From a virus, in the IMG/VR virus record IMGVR_UViG_3300035703_000316, positions 1 to 31,224 of that record: a stretch of DNA of 31,224 nucleotides. The stretch is one strand, 5' to 3'. The stretch's first letter is position 1, and each line of letters begins with the position of its first letter. The notes below the pieces were generated by a model. That model was not told where the DNA came from and did not search any database. It was given only the letters and a program-made list of their open reading frames with translations. Positions 1-27,413 of the stretch are shown here, one piece after another. The position numbers and the translations under genes were made by a program.

Positions 1-598
1 TGTAGAACGCCATCTGCCGGTGATAACCAAACTTGACGATTGACCGTTCAAACTCGCCCGCATCCATCGTGGTTTTCAGGTCCGCCATGATGCCCGGTTT
101 AAGCCAGTCTGCTCGAGCTTTGCACCGAAGGCCTGTTTCTGGATCGTCCCAAACCAATGAGACTTCAGCCCTGCCATCCTGCAGCAACTGCTTTGCTTTT
201 TCGTTTTCAGCTAAGGCGGTAGCCATTCCGACCATCGTGTTGTACTGGTCTTCTGTGACGATCTCTTTATCAAAATTCAGCTTGCGAAAGTTCTCTTCCA
301 TCTGCTTGACGAAATCCGTCGTTTTCGCGAAGGACCGCTCGCCGTTCTTTGTCTTGTTTTCCGGATGCTTGCCATAATCCGGCATGAAGACATATCGCTT
401 TGCAATTGCCAACGGCTCCAACACTCCACTGTGAACCAATGAGCCCAACTGCATCGCGGGAGTTGCCTCATTGAAGCCGTGCTGATAATGTCGCGGCGAT
501 CGTTTCAGCAGACTCAGCTTCGAGTTGCTGACAGCCTCCCACGCAAAGTAATCCTCTGCAGGAACGTTTTCATACACACCCGGTTCCGGACACTTCAC
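1..598 (-). CDS. RecE/exonuclease VIII-like PD-(D/E)XK nuclease, C-terminus cut by window edge
   Basis: This frame stays open from a GTG at 598 to the left edge (199 codons), so the gene is partial. The protein reads KCPEPGVYENVPAEDYFAWE at the start, then a conserved LGSLVHSGVLEP helix near residue 65 and RADWLKPGIMADLKTTMDAG near residue 175. The second stretch has the D...D-x-K layout of the nuclease core of the exonuclease VIII PDDEXK-like family (DUF3799 type). Such enzymes resect double-stranded ends for single-strand annealing recombination in phages, normally beside an annealing protein, which would lie left of the window. The GTG start is chosen because AGGTGA sits 5 bases before it and an in-frame stop lies just upstream. 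A later in-frame GTG (codon 8) is possible. Family assignment is confident; substrate is inferred. Confidence 0.82.
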   Translation of the reverse strand, partial: MKCPEPGVYENVPAEDYFAWEAVSNSKLSLLKRSPRHYQHGFNEATPAMQLGSLVHSGVLEPLAIAKRYVFMPDYGKHPENKTKNGERSFAKTTDFVKQMEENFRKLNFDKEIVTEDQYNTMVGMATALAENEKAKQLLQDGRAEVSLVWDDPETGLRCKARADWLKPGIMADLKTTMDAGEFERSIVKFGYHRQMAFY

Positions 599-606
599 AA
601 CTCACC

Positions 607-762
607 TCACTGTCTGCCTCTGGTTATTCCGCTTGACTCAAAATGTTCGGTTGCTGAGTGCCGCACAGCCTGCCGAACGCAGCCGGGAGTTAACGCGATT
701 GGCCGAGGCCCACCTGCACCCGGAAAGGTGTTCTCATTGTTCTCTTCGCGGCCATCTTTCAT
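607..762 (-). CDS. Possible 51-residue protein of unknown function
   Basis: A short frame starting MKDGREENNENTFPGAGGPR and ending ESSGITRGRQ fills the gap between csrA and the exonuclease gene. Its stop lies immediately before the Shine-Dalgarno of the exonuclease, a spacing usual in this operon. The ribosome site before the ATG is weak (GGGAAAAG). I recognise no family and see no membrane segment. Just upstream a 21-residue frame (849-784) begins on the last base of the csrA stop codon (TAATG), so translation could also re-enter there. Either, both or neither may be expressed. Confidence 0.35.
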   Translation of the reverse strand: MKDGREENNENTFPGAGGPRPIALTPGCVRQAVRHSATEHFESSGITRGRQ

Positions 763-848: not shown

Positions 849-1055
849 TTAGGCTTCGGTTCCGACCGCTGCTTCAATCTGTGTTTCTGCAACGTCCGTT
901 TGCGTACCATCGATCAGTTCCTTTCTCACGATGTTGAAATCTCGCGGCGCTTTGATGCCGACCCTGACCGAGTTTGGCCCGATCCTGACAATCATGATTT
1001 CGATGTCTTCACCAATCACAATCACTTCTTCTTGACGTCGACTAAGTACAAGCAT
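849..1055 (-). CDS. csrA: CsrA/RsmA-family RNA-binding translational regulator
   Basis: A 68-residue protein that aligns without gaps to CsrA over its first 47 residues: MLVLSRRQEEVIVIGEDIEI, then RVGIKAPRDFNIVRKEL. CsrA is a dimer of intertwined beta strands that binds GGA motifs in mRNA leaders and blocks or alters translation. The key RNA-contact residues of the family, Leu4 and Arg44, are present, as are Arg6, Gly15, Arg31, Gly33, Ala36 and Pro37; the usual Gly9 is Glu. The acidic tail (DVAETQIEAAVGTEA) is variable in the family. A GGGAGGAACGAA ribosome site precedes the ATG and itself contains a GGA core, so self-regulation is plausible. It lies inside a phage early operon, after a structured leader, and is surrounded by small phage genes. 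Likely target transcripts (host or late phage) are unknown. Confidence 0.93.
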   Translation of the reverse strand: MLVLSRRQEEVIVIGEDIEIMIVRIGPNSVRVGIKAPRDFNIVRKELIDGTQTDVAETQIEAAVGTEA

Positions 1056-1080
1056 TTCGTTCCTCCCTGAAGAATCTCCA

Positions 1081-1140
1081 CCAGCGAGCGGCCAACGGTG
1101 ACCCTTACACCATCCAACCTCTTGGACGGCCGCTCGCTGG
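1081..1140 (-). promoter_or_regulatory. Three-way-junction RNA leader in front of csrA
   Basis: A perfect 13-bp inverted repeat (CCAGCGAGCGGCC at 1081-1093, GGCCGCTCGCTGG at 1128-1140) encloses two smaller perfect hairpins: GGTG/CACC (1097-1100 with 1108-1111) and TCCAA/TTGGA (1113-1117 with 1122-1126, four-base loop). On the transcribed minus strand this makes a cloverleaf-like three-way junction ending about 25 bases before the csrA start. The loop of one arm reads GAGG. No T-run follows, so it is not a simple terminator. The stretch 1056-1220 otherwise holds no convincing gene. A riboregulatory role, perhaps CsrA autoregulation or mRNA protection, is an inference from position. Confidence 0.6.
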
Positions 1141-1220
1141 ATTCAAAATCAACTGGTCGCGAATAGTTCGCACCGGAGATCAGCCGCCCCGCTTTGATCC
1201 ATGCGGAACCAGTTGTGTAT

Positions 1221-1337
1221 TCAACGTGTCGGGTTTTGCTTGTCGAAAACAACCTGCAAAAACACGACGATCCCAAGTGCTAATGTGATGCCCAGAGGAA
1301 TCAACAGGTCGCGAATTTCTTCAGGTTGTGGATTCAC
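1221..1337 (-). CDS. Small single-pass membrane protein, 38 residues
   Basis: The frame could be read from farther upstream, but the best start is the GTG at 1337, preceded by AAAGGAG at 8 bases. That gives a 38-residue product beginning MNPQPEEIRDLLIPLGITLA and ending FDKQNPTR, with one hydrophobic helix (about residues 11-31) and a charged tail. It overlaps the end of the zinc-ribbon gene by 17 bases in another frame, as many gene pairs here do. Function unknown; small membrane peptides in phage early regions can be exclusion or host-interference proteins, but nothing here shows that. Confidence 0.6.
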   Translation of the reverse strand: MNPQPEEIRDLLIPLGITLALGIVVFLQVVFDKQNPTR

Positions 1338-1614: not shown

Positions 1615-1977
1615 TCACCTCGCCCTAAACAATTGCCCGCCGTTCCGTTCCTCTTCCAACTTCTCACACAGATCCGTGTTCCGTTTGATCTCGTCCGCTC
1701 GTTTCCGATAGTTGTCGAGCTTTGCCGCGTATGCTTCCCGATCGTTAATCAGATGACTGCAGTATTCATCGCAACAAGCCTTTGCCAATTCCTTCGCGGT
1801 CATTGGTACACCGCGACGTTTCAGCACAGCCAGCACCAGAGCGTGTTGTGCAGTCACAACCTTTTCGATCTTCGCCGCGGCCTTGTGGCTCGTTACCGGA
1901 TCACTCCTGCGAGCAATCGGAGCGACAGCAACCGGCTCGAATTCATCGAAAAAGGTTTTCTGTTTGAGTGCTGCCAT
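1615..1977 (-). CDS. Winged-helix-like phage protein, 120 residues
   Basis: Residues about 25-70 read RRSDPVTSHKAAAKIEKVV and then QHALVLAVLKRRGVPMTAKE, the DPxTSHxAA...VL..L...G.pmTakEla pattern of small phage proteins with a winged helix-turn-helix fold. The C-terminal part is a charged helix (YRKRADEIKRNTDLCEKLEE). A DNA-binding role is likely; the target is unknown. The ATG at 1977 is preferred over the TTG two codons earlier, which would overlap the preceding stop. It sits in a run of small genes downstream of the HNH nuclease. Confidence 0.68.
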   Translation of the reverse strand: MAALKQKTFFDEFEPVAVAPIARRSDPVTSHKAAAKIEKVVTAQHALVLAVLKRRGVPMTAKELAKACCDEYCSHLINDREAYAAKLDNYRKRADEIKRNTDLCEKLEEERNGGQLFRAR

Positions 1978-1979
1978 GA

Positions 1980-2219
1980 TCAATACTCACTGTTTCGATC
2001 CCAGTTCATCAGTGAATCGTCGTTCAAGTCGATTGGCTGCTTCGGATCACCGAGTGACAGGCTTTTCGGAACCACGACCACCGCTCCAGCTTCGACAAGC
2101 CGAACAGCCTTCCGGATCTTTTCCAGCGACTGCTGAGCAATGTCGATTGGCATTGGGCTGCCGACTTTTTTCCGCCACCGTGCCATCAGGCTTTGAATTT
2201 CTTTGCGGTCGCTGCTCAT
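1980..2219 (-). CDS. Conserved-looking small protein of unknown function, 79 residues
   Basis: Starts MSSDRKEIQSLMARWRKKVG at an ATG overlapping the HNH gene's stop (TGATG) with a strong AGGAGG ribosome site, so it is almost certainly translated. It is predicted helical in the N-terminal half, then a short hydrophobic strand (EAGAVVVVPKSLSLGD). No cysteine cluster, signal or membrane segment. I do not recognise the family. The coupling to the HNH gene suggests early expression. Confidence 0.7.
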   Translation of the reverse strand: MSSDRKEIQSLMARWRKKVGSPMPIDIAQQSLEKIRKAVRLVEAGAVVVVPKSLSLGDPKQPIDLNDDSLMNWDRNSEY

Positions 2220-2656
2220 CAAAACTCCTCCTGAGTGACTAAATCGCTTTTCAAATATTCCTCAATGAGCATTTCACGCCGCTGGTTGTTGTGGGCGCGG
2301 CACTCAATCTGGCAGTTTTCCACTGTCATTCCGCCGCCCTTCGAACGTGGCACCAGATGGCCGCATTCCGCCTCTGAGCAGCACGGACCTTTGCCGCGAT
2401 TGCTGAAAAAGCATCGCACGCCATGAGCGATTGCGACCTCGACTTTTGTTTTCGTGTTGGTGTTCTTTCGCACGCTCAGCCGCATTCGGTCGATGTCGTC
2501 CGGAGTAAATGGAAACACCGTTTCGTCGAAGTGCATGACCCACTCGGCATAGATCAGGCACGCCGCCTCTTTCCGTTCTCGATCAGTCACGAGATCACGC
2601 CCGCCAAGCTGAGCTTTCTGTATCGCAATGGCCAGCTTCAGTTCGTTGAAAGTCAT
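2219..2656 (-). CDS. HNH endonuclease
   Basis: The 145-residue protein ends with an HNH/beta-beta-alpha-metal module: CCSEAECGHLVPRSKGGGMT, then VENCQIECRAHNNQRREML (residues about 95-135), with the H of GHLVPRS, the N of VENCQ and the closing HNN. The N-terminal two thirds are helical and may give DNA specificity. It begins on an ATGA overlap with the stop of the methyltransferase gene, so the two are translationally coupled. A nuclease beside a DNA methyltransferase could form a restriction-modification-like pair or be a free-standing phage nuclease; the sequence does not decide. Confidence 0.82.
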   Translation of the reverse strand: MTFNELKLAIAIQKAQLGGRDLVTDRERKEAACLIYAEWVMHFDETVFPFTPDDIDRMRLSVRKNTNTKTKVEVAIAHGVRCFFSNRGKGPCCSEAECGHLVPRSKGGGMTVENCQIECRAHNNQRREMLIEEYLKSDLVTQEEF

Positions 2657-4041
2657 GAAATCACCAGCCGTTTCTGAGCGAGATCAATGAACGCTTCGCT
2701 CTTGTCGATGCCGATGTATTTCCGGCCGTTTCGAACACTGGCAACGCCTGTAGTTCCGCTTCCGTTGAACGGATCAACAACCAAGTCGCCGGGCTCACTC
2801 GCACACAGCACAATCGGTTCCACGAGTGCCAACGGAAGTTGTGTCGGAAACGTCGGAATCCGTTCTTCGCATGAGCCTGTAAGTCGCGGAATCTGCCAAA
2901 CGTCGTCCCAGATTTTCCCGCCTGCTGCCGCTCGCTTGTCGTTGTACTTCGCTTGACGATCAGACGGCCGCGACACAGGTTCGGCATTCCAAACCATCGC
3001 CCGCTTGTGCATCGTTGCATAGAAGATGTGGCGACTTGTTCGATTAAACTTCCCAGAGCAGTTGACGCCGAACGTTTCGTACCATTTGATCCAGTTCCGA
3101 ATGTTAAACCCAAGATCCTTCAAGATCAGACAGGACTCTGCAGCAACCTCATCGCAGGTCATTAACCAGAGACTGCCATCATCGGTCAGGCATTCCTTGC
3201 ACAGTGCAATCCAGTCTTTGCACCAGCCAATAAACTTGTCATGAGGAATTGAATCTGCCTCAGCGCCGTCGCCGTAATCGACGCCAATGTTGTACGGTGG
3301 ATCTGTAAAAATGAGACGGGCAGGCCCGTGATTGTCGCGAACCGACTCCAGACCTGTCATCACGTCATCATTGATTAGAGTCCACAAAGGCTGATCGTTA
3401 CTGAGTTCCGCGACCGCGTCAGCCTTCTGCTTGATCTCTGCGGCCTTTTCAGTTCGCTTGATTTCTGCCGTTGCCTGTGGAATCGTGAGCTTGCCCTGTT
3501 CAATCTTTTCGGCAAGGTCAGGGCGCGTGGCGACGATCTTTTCTGCTGGCTTGATGTACTTGCGATTCGTACCAGCCGCTTCCGCTCGCTTTGCCTCTGT
3601 ACGAGTTGTATCGTCTCGTTTGCTTGGGGAATTATTTCCCCTAGCAGATTGTTTCTGATGTTGATTTTTCGGTTGTGCCTTAGCGGTTTCAGCGATTGCC
3701 TTCTGATACTCTTCGTCGAGTTGAGCCCGCTTTGCGTCCGCAATAGCCGCCTGGCTTGATGTGAGATGCCTGCGAGTCCGATTCTTTGACCAGACAAAAG
3801 CGAGGGCATCGGCAGCTGTTCCGTTGAACTCGATTGTCTTTGGCTTTACCTGAGCAATCGCACAAGCAGCACTGCGGTTTCGACCGTCCAAAACCTTTCC
3901 GTCAAACATGACGACAGGTTCCCGGAGTCCGTGCTTTGCGATATCGTCTGCAAGGGCCTGCAGATCTTCATCTGGCATCATCGGAAAAATGCAGGCCGCT
4001 GGATGCCAAGACAGGCTGGCAGTATCGCCGCGCGTACCCAT
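2653..4041 (-). CDS. ParB-like domain fused to N4/N6 DNA methyltransferase
   Basis: A 462-residue two-domain protein. Residues about 10-110 are a ParB/Spo0J nuclease-like domain (LADDIAKHGLREPVVMFDGK, then LDGRNRSAAC). A charged linker follows (110-215). Residues 240-462 are an amino-DNA methyltransferase: catalytic TDPPYNIGVDYG with DPPY at 247-250, and the SAM-binding DPFNGSGTTG near 425. Motif IV before motif I gives the beta-class order. These fusions are common in phages and methylate adenine or cytosine amino groups, often to protect phage DNA. I start at the second ATG (4041) because GGAGG lies 8 bases before it; an ATG five codons earlier is in frame but has no ribosome site. Confidence 0.92.
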   Translation of the reverse strand: MGTRGDTASLSWHPAACIFPMMPDEDLQALADDIAKHGLREPVVMFDGKVLDGRNRSAACAIAQVKPKTIEFNGTAADALAFVWSKNRTRRHLTSSQAAIADAKRAQLDEEYQKAIAETAKAQPKNQHQKQSARGNNSPSKRDDTTRTEAKRAEAAGTNRKYIKPAEKIVATRPDLAEKIEQGKLTIPQATAEIKRTEKAAEIKQKADAVAELSNDQPLWTLINDDVMTGLESVRDNHGPARLIFTDPPYNIGVDYGDGAEADSIPHDKFIGWCKDWIALCKECLTDDGSLWLMTCDEVAAESCLILKDLGFNIRNWIKWYETFGVNCSGKFNRTSRHIFYATMHKRAMVWNAEPVSRPSDRQAKYNDKRAAAGGKIWDDVWQIPRLTGSCEERIPTFPTQLPLALVEPIVLCASEPGDLVVDPFNGSGTTGVASVRNGRKYIGIDKSEAFIDLAQKRLVIS

Positions 4042-4056
4042 GCCGCAAACCTCCAT

Positions 4057-4220: not shown

Positions 4221-4457
4221 CTAGGCGGCTGAAATTTTATTCCTTTTTTTCAGCTTGATGGAAAGCGTTCCACCGAACGCGTTTGCGATTTTTTCCGCAC
4301 GCTCAATCGTGACTCTTTCTTTTCCGTTCAGAATGCGAGACAGATTGCCCGGATCCAGTCCGACAGACTGCGCGGCGGCACAAACGGTCATACCGCTGGC
4401 TTCGATCAGCTTTTTCAATTGGTCACAGAAGTCATTCATGGCGACTGATTCTGACAT
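4221..4457 (-). CDS. XRE-family (Cro/CI-type) helix-turn-helix repressor
   Basis: A 78-residue single-domain HTH protein. Residues 10-65 carry LIEASGMTVCAAAQSVGLDP then GNLSRILNGKERVTIERAEK: helix 2-turn-helix 3 around residues 25-43 with the typical N-L-S-R-I-L-N-G recognition helix end. There is no C-terminal cleavage or dimerisation domain, so it resembles Cro or a short plasmid/phage repressor. The ATG at 4457 has GGGG eight bases upstream; an in-frame ATG six codons later lacks a ribosome site. It is divergent to the plus-strand genes at 4608 onward and is flanked on both sides by matching palindromes, so it probably controls both itself and the divergent promoter. Confidence 0.88.
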   Translation of the reverse strand: MSESVAMNDFCDQLKKLIEASGMTVCAAAQSVGLDPGNLSRILNGKERVTIERAEKIANAFGGTLSIKLKKRNKISAA

Positions 4458-5517: not shown

Positions 5518-6396
5518 ATGGCACAGTTGATTGACTTGGCCGTGCGGCATGTCCGCGAAAACAATCTCAAGGGACGAACGCCGATCTACTCGGCCGCGAG
5601 GTTCGTCCGGTTGGTAGGTGATGTGGCTCCGGAATCAATCACGACGGACCATCTCAACCAATACCGTCAGGCCTGTGCAGGCCTCTCGCCAAAGACCATC
5701 GAAAGCAGTATCGGAAACATTCTTACCATCGTGTCAGAAATGACCGGCCGCAAGATTCCGGCAGGGAAACGGCTGAAACTGAAAAAGCCCGTGCCGCGTC
5801 CGGTTCCTGATGATGCCGTCAACGCGGTCTATGAGCTGGCTCCGCAATGGCTGAAAGGCTGGATCGCACTAACAGTCTGGACCGGTCTTCGAGTCGGTGA
5901 CGGAGTGGAGCTAATGTGGGAGATTGCCGGAACAGATCCCGGCTCAGTGCTGCGGACAAACGCGGGCAAAACTGGAAAGCAGCACGTTTTCCCCATGCCC
6001 GACTGGCTTCGTCAGATCGTCGCTGATTCGCCGTTCCCTCGTGAATACTGCCTTGAAAACACAAAGAAATATGTGCGAGCACAAATCTACTTGTGCTGCG
6101 AATCGGCAGGCATCCGCAAATGGGGGCCAAAGAACCTACGGCAAAGAGCAATCACGGAATGGAGCAAAGCCAACGCGACTGCTGGAGCCATTCTGCACGG
6201 GTGCGGCCTAGGCGTCATGCACCACTATTTAGACCCGCTATCAGTGCTCGAATCGGCCATGCACCGCGTCCGCGTTCCATCCTGCTTCGGGGCTGTCGTG
6301 TCTTCCGAGGATTCGCTGCTGTCGGCTTATCGTCGGCTCGATCCGGCGGCACAGGGGCTGGTGAGTATGACGGCGGAGAGGTTGGCGGCTGGTTGA
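5518..6396 (+). CDS. Divergent tyrosine recombinase (phage integrase)
   Basis: A 292-residue protein with a short N-terminal SAM-like DNA-binding half (residues 1-90) and a tyrosine-recombinase catalytic half. Candidate active residues: Arg125 in WTGLRVGDGVEL, Lys151/154 in NAGKTGKQHVF, Arg208 in GPKNLRQRAITEW (the family's HxLR box has Lys in place of His), His227 in ILHGCGLG, and Tyr237 in MHHYLDP. The enzyme would integrate or excise the phage, or resolve multimers. AAAGG lies nine bases before the ATG. The protein is divergent, and its C-terminal tail after the tyrosine is long (about 55 residues). It is followed by a strong terminator. Confidence 0.82.
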   Translation: MAQLIDLAVRHVRENNLKGRTPIYSAARFVRLVGDVAPESITTDHLNQYRQACAGLSPKTIESSIGNILTIVSEMTGRKIPAGKRLKLKKPVPRPVPDDAVNAVYELAPQWLKGWIALTVWTGLRVGDGVELMWEIAGTDPGSVLRTNAGKTGKQHVFPMPDWLRQIVADSPFPREYCLENTKKYVRAQIYLCCESAGIRKWGPKNLRQRAITEWSKANATAGAILHGCGLGVMHHYLDPLSVLESAMHRVRVPSCFGAVVSSEDSLLSAYRRLDPAAQGLVSMTAERLAAG

Positions 6397-26510: not shown

Positions 26511-27395
26511 TCAAAACGTCAACGCTGCTTGTTTTCCATCTGGCACATCATCAGTGCCATTGCCCTGTCTTGCAGCACTGCAAGGGCATTGTCCACATTC
26601 ACAGCTGCCGCATCCAACGCATCTATCTGTAGCTGACAAGGATTTGAACCGTCGCTGACCAACAGACTGCCATTTGATTTCTGTGCCAGCTGGCGTCGTG
26701 ATTTTGTGATCCGTTGAATTAACCACAGTACCAATTTGATTCGCCAATGCTGCATGTGTCGGTTCCTTTTCAATCTTCACTGGAAGCTGTATCAGCCCCG
26801 TTCTCTGAAGCAGTTCCACAACGTTGTTCAGCCCAAAAATCGACAACGCCATGATGATGAAACCGGCTGCAATTTTTGGGTGTCGTTGAACCATTCGAAT
26901 AGTCCCGAGCACAAATCTGTCCTCATCGGTTTGCGTCGTCACCGTCTTGATTTCCGTCGTCATTGCTTCCAGCCTCTTAGTGATTTCACCGTAGTTTTCC
27001 ATTGCCTGCGTGAATGCTGCCGCCGTCCCATTTTTTAGAGGCTCCCAAGTACACAGGCAACATTCGATCGGACCACTGAGCGGATATCTCATAACCGTTA
27101 ACTGCCCCCATTCAGGCTTCGCACCCTTGGGAACATACTGCTTTTTGACTGCATAACTTGGATTGTACGCGTCCAGATTTTTCGCCTCATCAACATCAGC
27201 TTCGAGGTTCTTATCCGGGACACTGATCTGCATCCACGTCAACTGTCGCAACTCATTTAGCGTGTACTGTGACCATTCACAGAACGCCGCATTCGCCCAC
27301 AAAATCCGACCGTCCAAAGTGCTGACCAACTTCATCGCCGGGCAGTGTTTGACCCACGTTCGGAGCTGTTCCTCTTTGGCTTCGTCGATCCACAT
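26511..27395 (-). CDS. PAS-domain membrane protein with apparent C-terminal frameshift
   Basis: Residues about 20-118 are a PAS domain: MKLVSTLDGRILWANAAFCE, WSQYTLNELRQLTWMQISVP and, after a linker, WGQLTVMRYPLSGPIECCLC. PAS domains sense small molecules, redox or other proteins. One transmembrane helix follows (about 176-195, AAGFIIMALSIFGLNNVVEL). As read, the protein ends in an odd Cys-rich tail (CVGCGSCECGQCPC). Dropping one A of the AAA at 26673-26675 joins GTEI to NGSLLVSDGSNPCQLQIDAL and DAAAVNVDNALAVLQDRAMA, ending at 26519, which looks like the genuine C-terminus. No kinase domain is seen. Start: ATG at 27395 with AGGGA nine bases upstream; ATG at 27404 is also in frame. Confidence 0.75.
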   Translation of the reverse strand: MWIDEAKEEQLRTWVKHCPAMKLVSTLDGRILWANAAFCEWSQYTLNELRQLTWMQISVPDKNLEADVDEAKNLDAYNPSYAVKKQYVPKGAKPEWGQLTVMRYPLSGPIECCLCTWEPLKNGTAAAFTQAMENYGEITKRLEAMTTEIKTVTTQTDEDRFVLGTIRMVQRHPKIAAGFIIMALSIFGLNNVVELLQRTGLIQLPVKIEKEPTHAALANQIGTVVNSTDHKITTPAGTEIKWQSVGQRRFKSLSATDRCVGCGSCECGQCPCSAARQGNGTDDVPDGKQAALTF

Positions 27396-27413
27396 CACCA
27401 CCATTCCCTGTTG

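What the first reader, a model, noticed from the sequence alone, without database searches (positions are those of the whole stretch)
849..1055. Phage-encoded CsrA
A near-canonical CsrA with its RNA-contact residues intact is embedded in a phage early operon, after small phage genes and before a recombination nuclease. Established: CsrA binds GGA hairpins and globally controls translation. Inference: the phage uses it to reprogram host or phage translation, for example to delay late gene expression.
Basis: partly seen in the sequence, partly recalled or inferred. Interest (0 to 1): 0.75.

Follow-up and report, generated by a model that had tools for sequence, protein, structure and literature searches.

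The report
Self-regulated CsrA in planctomycete-type phages
[quoted passage not shown] related viruses keep a csrA gene in the same place but swap in different versions, and the sequence suggests the protein switches off its own production.

Summary
It is not host DNA. Phage csrA as a kind is already published (Sobrero & Valverde 2020; Campa et al. 2021), so this is a new member of a known kind. New here: (1) csrA sits in a conserved slot of this phage group, in all seven contigs where the slot is assembled, but the alleles come from different CsrA subfamilies: the window has a planctomycete 'IVR' type, four relatives (exonuclease 88-91% identical) a classic type. (2) The csrA Shine-Dalgarno lies in a potential ANGGAN hexaloop hairpin, the canonical CsrA site; such hairpins occur in 8 of 11 phage IVR-type csrA leader clusters and 0 of 11 chromosomal ones, so negative autoregulation is the best-supported mechanism. 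(3) A covarying cloverleaf RNA precedes csrA and matches no Rfam family. No other gene in the window has such a hairpin at its start, so delayed late genes are not supported; host mRNAs are likelier targets (inferred). The host is probably a planctomycete (inferred).

The parts
849..1055 (-). csrA, 68 aa, 'IVR-type' CsrA (L4, R6, R7, R44 intact)
   Evidence: PF02599 72.1 bits; alignments
1060..1071 (-). potential CsrA site over the csrA Shine-Dalgarno: UUC-AGGGAG-GAA hexaloop hairpin; a further UUC/GAA pairing (1072-1074 with 1056-1058) is possible across a bulged C
   Evidence: read from sequence; hexaloop test and register control. The single-sequence MFE gives an alternative, slightly shifted hairpin.
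1081..1140 (-). perfect 13-bp inverted repeat (1081-1093 / 1128-1140) in the csrA leader; not seen in the four slot relatives
   Evidence: folds as part of the leader
1146..1219 (-). E1: conserved cloverleaf-like leader RNA (4 helices, invariant complementary loops GGAUC / GAUCU)
   Evidence: alignment A3; 4 pairs with compensatory changes, 99% of cells paired; cmsearch hits only the window and four relatives strongly; no Rfam match
643..736 (-). E2: noncoding element of about 95 nt downstream of csrA, 95% identical to a stretch UPSTREAM of csrA in L139
   Evidence: exact core found in one other viral contig
1..598 (-). exonuclease VIII / DUF3799 (PD-(D/E)XK), probable GTG start at 598, truncated by contig end
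   Evidence: PF12684 E 7e-20; PHROG 412; start read from sequence
1221..1337 (-). small hydrophobic (probable membrane) ORF
   Evidence: read from sequence; small ORFs at the equivalent place in L140-L142
1321..1611 (-). small HNH-like gene of the slot
   Evidence: PHROG 374, E 1.7e-11; syntenic in relatives
1615..1983 (-). conserved early gene 'p1615', usual upstream neighbour of csrA
   Evidence: PHROG 1123; found near csrA in L204-L206, L208-L211, L014, L249-L251
1980..2222 (-). conserved small early gene 'p1980'
2219..2656 (-). HNH endonuclease-like gene
2653..4056 (-). ParB-like + N6/N4 DNA methyltransferase
   Evidence: PF01555 E 8e-48
4221..4457 (-). HTH (Cro/C1 type) regulator at the head of the leftward early region
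   Evidence: promoter-like match at 4476-4448 (-), terminator-like match at 4187-4156 (-)
5518..6396 (+). tyrosine integrase
   Evidence: PHROG 1 E 2e-12

Best explanation
It is a genuine CsrA (translational regulator that binds GGA in RNA), acquired from a planctomycete-like CsrA paralogue family and kept as an early gene by a group of temperate phages. Shown by sequence: intact family residues; a conserved genomic slot; purifying selection on the slot's csrA in relatives; non-orthologous alleles exchanged in that slot; a canonical CsrA-type hexaloop hairpin at the csrA Shine-Dalgarno. Inferred: the dimer binds that hairpin when CsrA is abundant and blocks ribosomes, so csrA translation is capped by negative autoregulation (host CsrA could do the same, tying phage csrA output to the host's free CsrA). 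Also inferred: its main targets are host mRNAs rather than the phage's own late genes.
For: Family and residues. Conserved slot: p1615 - HNH-like - csrA - p78 and/or exonuclease VIII order in G305-G308, G321 and G326, and in the window without p78; G312 breaks exactly in the slot. Purifying selection: identical CsrA in four contigs, 4-8 synonymous and 0 nonsynonymous differences per pair. Allele exchange: a 99/99 branch separates the window's IVR-type from the L139 classic type, and the AU test rejects grouping the two (p 0.018), although flanking genes are 83-94% identical in L210. Hairpin: in 82 distinct csrA leaders, ANGGAN hexaloops with stems of at least 4 pairs occur 9 times against 0.31 expected from shuffles; GGA in other loop registers 1, 2 and 1 times. 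In the IVR family: 8 of 11 phage leader clusters against 0 of 11 chromosomal, Fisher p 0.001. Of seven phage clusters fetched after the idea was formed, four have it; L244's leader contains the exact E. coli SELEX consensus RUACARGGAUGU (consensus from PMC7652899). E. coli csrA is autoregulated through sites in its leader, one over its SD (PMC7652899).
Against: No binding or expression data. The window's own hairpin has only 3 contiguous Watson-Crick pairs (2.8% by shuffling its flanks), and the single-sequence MFE pairs it differently; SELEX ligands with four or fewer contiguous pairs are common (PMC7652899). Three of 11 phage IVR-type clusters (L241-L243), and the classic and divergent alleles in the same slot, lack a canonical hairpin. 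Host targets are inferred only from the lack of canonical sites in the phage; less canonical sites would be missed, and the contig is incomplete. The tree has only 56 columns.
Confidence: 0.62

Rival explanations
1. One reading: phage CsrA represses phage late genes early in infection to time late expression.
For: csrA lies in the early region, and CsrA is mostly a translational repressor. The distant csrA-carrying contig G003 has three ANGGAN hairpins of at least 4 pairs at other gene starts, and G002 one at a large gene.
Against: In the window no late gene has a canonical hairpin at its start. Across 962 non-csrA genes of csrA-carrying contigs the ANGGAN hairpin rate is 1.2% (at least 4 pairs) against about 12% for csrA genes.
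Confidence: 0.12
2. Anti-defence: phage CsrA represses host CRISPR-Cas or other defence mRNAs, as proposed for phage RsmA homologues by Campa et al. 2021.
For: RsmA binds cas mRNAs and lowers interference in Serratia; phage RsmA homologues were found in GenBank and IMG/VR and the idea was put forward (PMC8450108). Swapping of alleles in one slot fits adaptation to host variety.
Against: Host and its defence systems unknown; nothing here tests it.
Confidence: 0.2
3. Sensor: the hairpin chiefly serves host CsrA, so the phage reads the host's Csr state (growth or motility) through translation of its own csrA or early operon.
For: The hairpin should bind any CsrA. One large planctomycete genome (G005) has 8 CsrA copies by Pfam, and other genomes had up to 15 matches.
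Against: Cannot be told from autoregulation by sequence; host not identified.
Confidence: 0.25
4. Lysogenic conversion 'moron': csrA benefits the lysogen (metabolism, biofilm, motility) rather than lytic growth.
For: The phage is temperate (integrase). csrA was called a moron in Burkholderia phage JC1 (PMC9144972).
Against: csrA lies inside the early leftward gene cluster next to recombination genes, not between unlike modules, and is present in all seven contigs with an assembled slot.
Confidence: 0.2
5. E1 is not RNA but the tail of a short peptide gene, or a DNA recombination site that helps alleles swap.
For: An open frame reading GSAWIK..R.IS.A crosses E1 in both lineages, and differences lean to third positions (read). 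The allele exchange boundary lies just past E1.
Against: Four pairs show compensatory changes and 99% of cells pair; slid controls give at most 50% of cells and one such pair. In the window the frame runs out of phase into csrA.
Confidence: 0.2

Closest known systems
CsrA/RsmA family in phages (Sobrero & Valverde 2020, PMC7366521: 30 of 2517 phage genomes; Campa et al. 2021, PMC8450108; PHROG 9500)
   Same: Small phage-encoded CsrA with conserved RNA-contact residues
   Different: Probable planctomycete phage lineage; IVR-type CsrA subfamily; conserved slot with exchanged alleles; leader hairpin and cloverleaf RNA, which I did not find described in the passages read
CsrA of Bcep22-like phage JC1 and relatives (PMC9144972)
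   Same: csrA as part of a temperate phage genome, conserved in a phage group
   Different: There it lies between the portal and capsid genes and may be in the virion; here it is in the early region before exonuclease VIII
E. coli csrA autoregulation (Pourciau et al. 2020 review, PMC7652899)
   Same: CsrA site overlapping the csrA Shine-Dalgarno; GGA in a hexaloop
   Different: Here predicted only; one canonical SD hairpin seen instead of four mapped sites
hcnA ribosome-binding-site stem-loop bound by RsmE (PMC4005645; PDB 2JPP)
   Same: ANGGAN hexaloop over the ribosome-binding site (ACGGAU there, AGGGAG here)
   Different: Different gene and host; not tested biochemically
Chromosomal IVR-type CsrA of Planctomycetota (L026-L041)
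   Same: Shared VRIGPN(S/T)VR and (N/S)IVR(D/E)EL motifs; highest identity to the window 62% (L034)
   Different: Chromosomal leaders show no ANGGAN hairpin of 2 or more pairs (0 of 11 clusters)

Membership tests
CsrA/RsmA (PF02599) | Significant match to the family profile over nearly its full length | tested here: met
   72.1 bits, cut-off 27, profile 1-50 of 53
CsrA/RsmA (PF02599) | RNA-contact residues L4 (beta1) and R44 (beta5) | tested here: met
   ungapped alignment to E. coli CsrA; importance of the residues from PMC7652899
CsrA/RsmA (PF02599) | Interlocked homodimer of the CsrA fold | not tested
   no structure prediction was run; sequence homology to solved CsrA dimers
CsrA/RsmA (PF02599) | Binds GGA RNA and regulates translation | not testable with these tools
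   needs gel shift or reporter
Phage-encoded CsrA (PHROG 9500) | Gene lies inside a phage genome, not in flanking host DNA | tested here: met
   early and structural phage genes around it; same order in other viral contigs
Autoregulated csrA | CsrA-type GGA hairpin overlapping its own Shine-Dalgarno | tested here: met
   UUC-AGGGAG-GAA at 1060-1071; statistics; the MFE alternative is a caveat
Autoregulated csrA | Repression of csrA translation by CsrA | not testable with these tools
   needs leader fusion
Csr sRNA (CsrB/RsmZ type) | Match to a known Csr/Rsm sRNA family or many GGA stem-loops in E1/E2 | tested here: not met
   no Rfam match; E1 carries one ANGGA loop

The most novel reading that the evidence does not exclude
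A group of temperate, probably planctomycete, phages keeps a dedicated csrA slot whose protein-coding allele is repeatedly replaced by other CsrA paralogues behind a conserved cloverleaf leader RNA, and phage copies have gained an autogenous SD hairpin that the chromosomal paralogue lacks: a swappable, self-limiting translational regulator cassette used to retune host translation.
Probability: 0.4. Interest if true: 0.65.

Novelty: new member of a known kind. Interest (0 to 1): 0.5.

Why it matters
Phage CsrA proteins have been listed for years, with hypotheses (anti-CRISPR, host manipulation, virion cargo) but no demonstrated role in the papers read here. A conserved slot with interchangeable alleles and a specific leader hairpin turns this into direct tests: does phage CsrA limit itself, does host CsrA read the same hairpin, and which mRNAs does it bind? 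The contrast between phage and chromosomal copies of one CsrA subfamily is a natural experiment. E1 is a candidate new structured RNA.

Tried and rejected
Plus-strand reading of the coordinates: not CsrA. Window CsrA by tblastn against INPHARED phages: none; against PLSDB: one weak plasmid hit. Known riboswitch, tRNA or Csr sRNA: no Rfam match, no tRNA by ARAGORN. E1 in planctomycete chromosomes: only weak, chance-level hits over 149 genomes. Intrinsic terminator in the window's csrA leader: none reported; one weak match in L139. Prophage of the same phage in planctomycete genomes: TerL at most 37% and exonuclease at most 38% identical over partial alignments, so the host is not proven. Late-gene hairpins: none in the window. 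MGE against chromosome contrast over all CsrA types: not general (some chromosomal csrA, e.g. L050, L054, L055, also have hairpins); it holds only within the IVR subfamily. Absence of csrA in relative G312: rejected, its contig breaks in the slot.

Full report
WHAT IS THERE. The window is an IMG/VR virus record of 31,224 bp. The CsrA gene is on the minus strand, 849-1055, ATG start, with AGGGAGG upstream. The protein scores 72 bits against PF02599 (cut-off 27) and matches PHROG 9500. L4, R6, R7 and R44 are kept; H43 is V. Upstream on the same strand are an HTH regulator, a ParB/methyltransferase fusion, an HNH gene and small genes; downstream is exonuclease VIII (DUF3799), cut by the contig end. 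The integrase is at 5518-6396 (+), and terminase, portal, protease, capsid and tape measure fill much of the rest.

RELATIVES AND THE SLOT. Exonuclease searches gave four contigs at 88-91% identity (L139-L142 = G305-G308). TerL searches gave 39 loci, most at 89-94%. The order p1615, HNH-like gene, csrA, p78, exonuclease VIII recurs in G305-G308, and p1615, HNH-like gene, csrA, p78 fragment in G321 and G326. G312 breaks exactly between the HNH-like gene and p78, so it says nothing about absence. Every contig in which the slot is assembled has a csrA (seven, with the window).

ALLELE EXCHANGE. The slot's csrA is not one orthologous gene. The window has an IVR-type (VRIGPNSVR, NIVRKEL). G305-G308 carry a classic type (RGDKVRLG, HRHEIYDAI), and G318, G321 and G326 a divergent type with an insertion. 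In L210, flanking proteins are 83-94% identical to the window (methyltransferase 88, HNH 94, p1615 83, exonuclease 88), while the CsrAs are 45%. A tree puts a 99/99 branch between the two types, and the AU test rejects joining window and L139 CsrA (p 0.018). The tree has only 56 columns, so finer branching is not trusted. In G305-G308 the CsrA protein is identical while the DNA differs at 4-8 sites per pair, all synonymous: purifying selection.

ORIGIN. The closest chromosomal proteins belong to an IVR-type subfamily of Planctomycetota, typically one strong match per genome, in genomes with several csrA paralogues (G005 has eight by Pfam). This suggests a planctomycete host, but no close prophage was found in 294 sampled genomes, so the host remains inferred.

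LEADER HAIRPIN. CsrA prefers GGA in a six-base loop, with short stems (SELEX consensus RUACARGGAUGU; PMC7652899); RsmE binds such a loop over the hcnA ribosome-binding site (PMC4005645). The window csrA SD can form UUC-AGGGAG-GAA (1060-1071). G001 has AUCGA-AAGGAA-UCGAU, G002 UUGA-AGGGAG-UCGA, G300 UUUC-AGGGAG-GAAA: same loop position, different stems. As a test, 82 distinct csrA leaders were scored in every GGA register. ANGGAN hexaloops with at least 4 pairs: 9 against 0.31 expected from shuffled flanks; hexaloops with GGA in the other registers: 1, 2 and 1. A size-by-register table singles out the same cell. Then a further viral scan fetched new phage IVR-type csrAs. Four of seven new clusters had the hairpin, one (L245) with 8 pairs, one (L244) with the exact SELEX consensus. 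One of these four, L249/L250, groups with G338 (L251), whose hairpin had been seen earlier, so it is not fully out of sample. Overall 8 of 11 phage clusters against 0 of 11 chromosomal clusters of the same subfamily (Fisher p 0.001). Caveats: the window's stem is short (2.8% by shuffling), its MFE fold is a slightly shifted hairpin, and the slot's classic and divergent alleles have only weak pairing.

OTHER TARGETS. Scanning gene starts in the window found no other canonical hairpin. Among 962 other genes with GGA in csrA-carrying contigs, 12 have ANGGAN hairpins of at least 4 pairs, against 6 of 50 csrA genes. So the phage's own late genes are not the obvious targets. The contig is incomplete, and weaker sites would be missed. 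Gene calls in these scans came from a simple ORF picker, so some starts may be wrong.

E1 AND E2. Between the small membrane ORF and csrA lies E1 (1146-1219 minus), conserved in G305-G308 although the csrA alleles differ. It forms a cloverleaf of four helices with 4 compensatory pairs and 99% of cells paired; slid controls give at most 50%. Two invariant loops are complementary (GGAUC/GAUCU). It matches no Rfam family and was found strongly in no other searched locus or viral contig. Only two lineages support it, and a short open frame crosses it, so coding is not excluded. E2 (643-736 minus) is 95% identical to a stretch on the other side of csrA in L139.

LITERATURE. Phage csrA is known: 30 of 2517 phages (PMC7366521), IMG/VR examples and an anti-CRISPR proposal (PMC8450108), and a possible virion-associated CsrA in phage JC1 (PMC9144972). 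In the passages read, I found no report of phage csrA autoregulation, of slot-wise allele exchange, or of planctomycete phage CsrA. These were targeted searches of open-access text only.

VERDICT. A real phage CsrA, a new member of a known kind, with a testable autoregulatory hairpin and an unusual pattern of allele exchange. Steps shown by sequence: family membership, slot, selection in relatives, exchange, hairpin enrichment. Steps inferred: RNA binding, self-repression, host targets, host identity.

Noticed in passing
L011/L012 (G001) 11293 and 22803: One phage contig carries two csrA genes: an IVR-type with the SD hexaloop hairpin and a classic type with a pentaloop AGGGA over its SD.
   Followed up: partly
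G054 (L212, L213, L214): Three related integrated elements in one planctomycete genome, each with a csrA next to an 83-aa gene, two or more with an integrase-like gene upstream (by sequence, not profile-tested).
   Followed up: partly
L217 (G158): csrA in an apparent integrated element (integrase-like and LexA-like genes nearby), with leader hairpin CUGA-AAGGAA-UCAG.
   Followed up: partly
L199, L200, L201 (G326, G321, G318): Divergent CsrA proteins with an insertion after beta1 and a longer C-terminal tail ending near RIG(E/Q)(R/P)LPGE, in phages with 92-93% TerL identity to the window.
   Followed up: no
G003 30615, 39129, 46238: A csrA-carrying contig with three ANGGAN SD hairpins at genes other than csrA, including a trypsin-like protease reading; the best candidate for a phage-internal Csr regulon.
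   Followed up: partly
window 643-736: E2: structured-looking noncoding element of about 95 nt that lies on opposite sides of csrA in two related phages.
   Followed up: partly
window 26511-27404: Protein reading like a PAS domain followed by a membrane segment, unusual in a phage structural or lysis region (read, not profile-tested).
   Followed up: no
Planctomycetota genomes: Some large genomes give 7-15 CsrA matches each; one IVR-type subfamily is typically represented by a single strong match per genome.
   Followed up: partly
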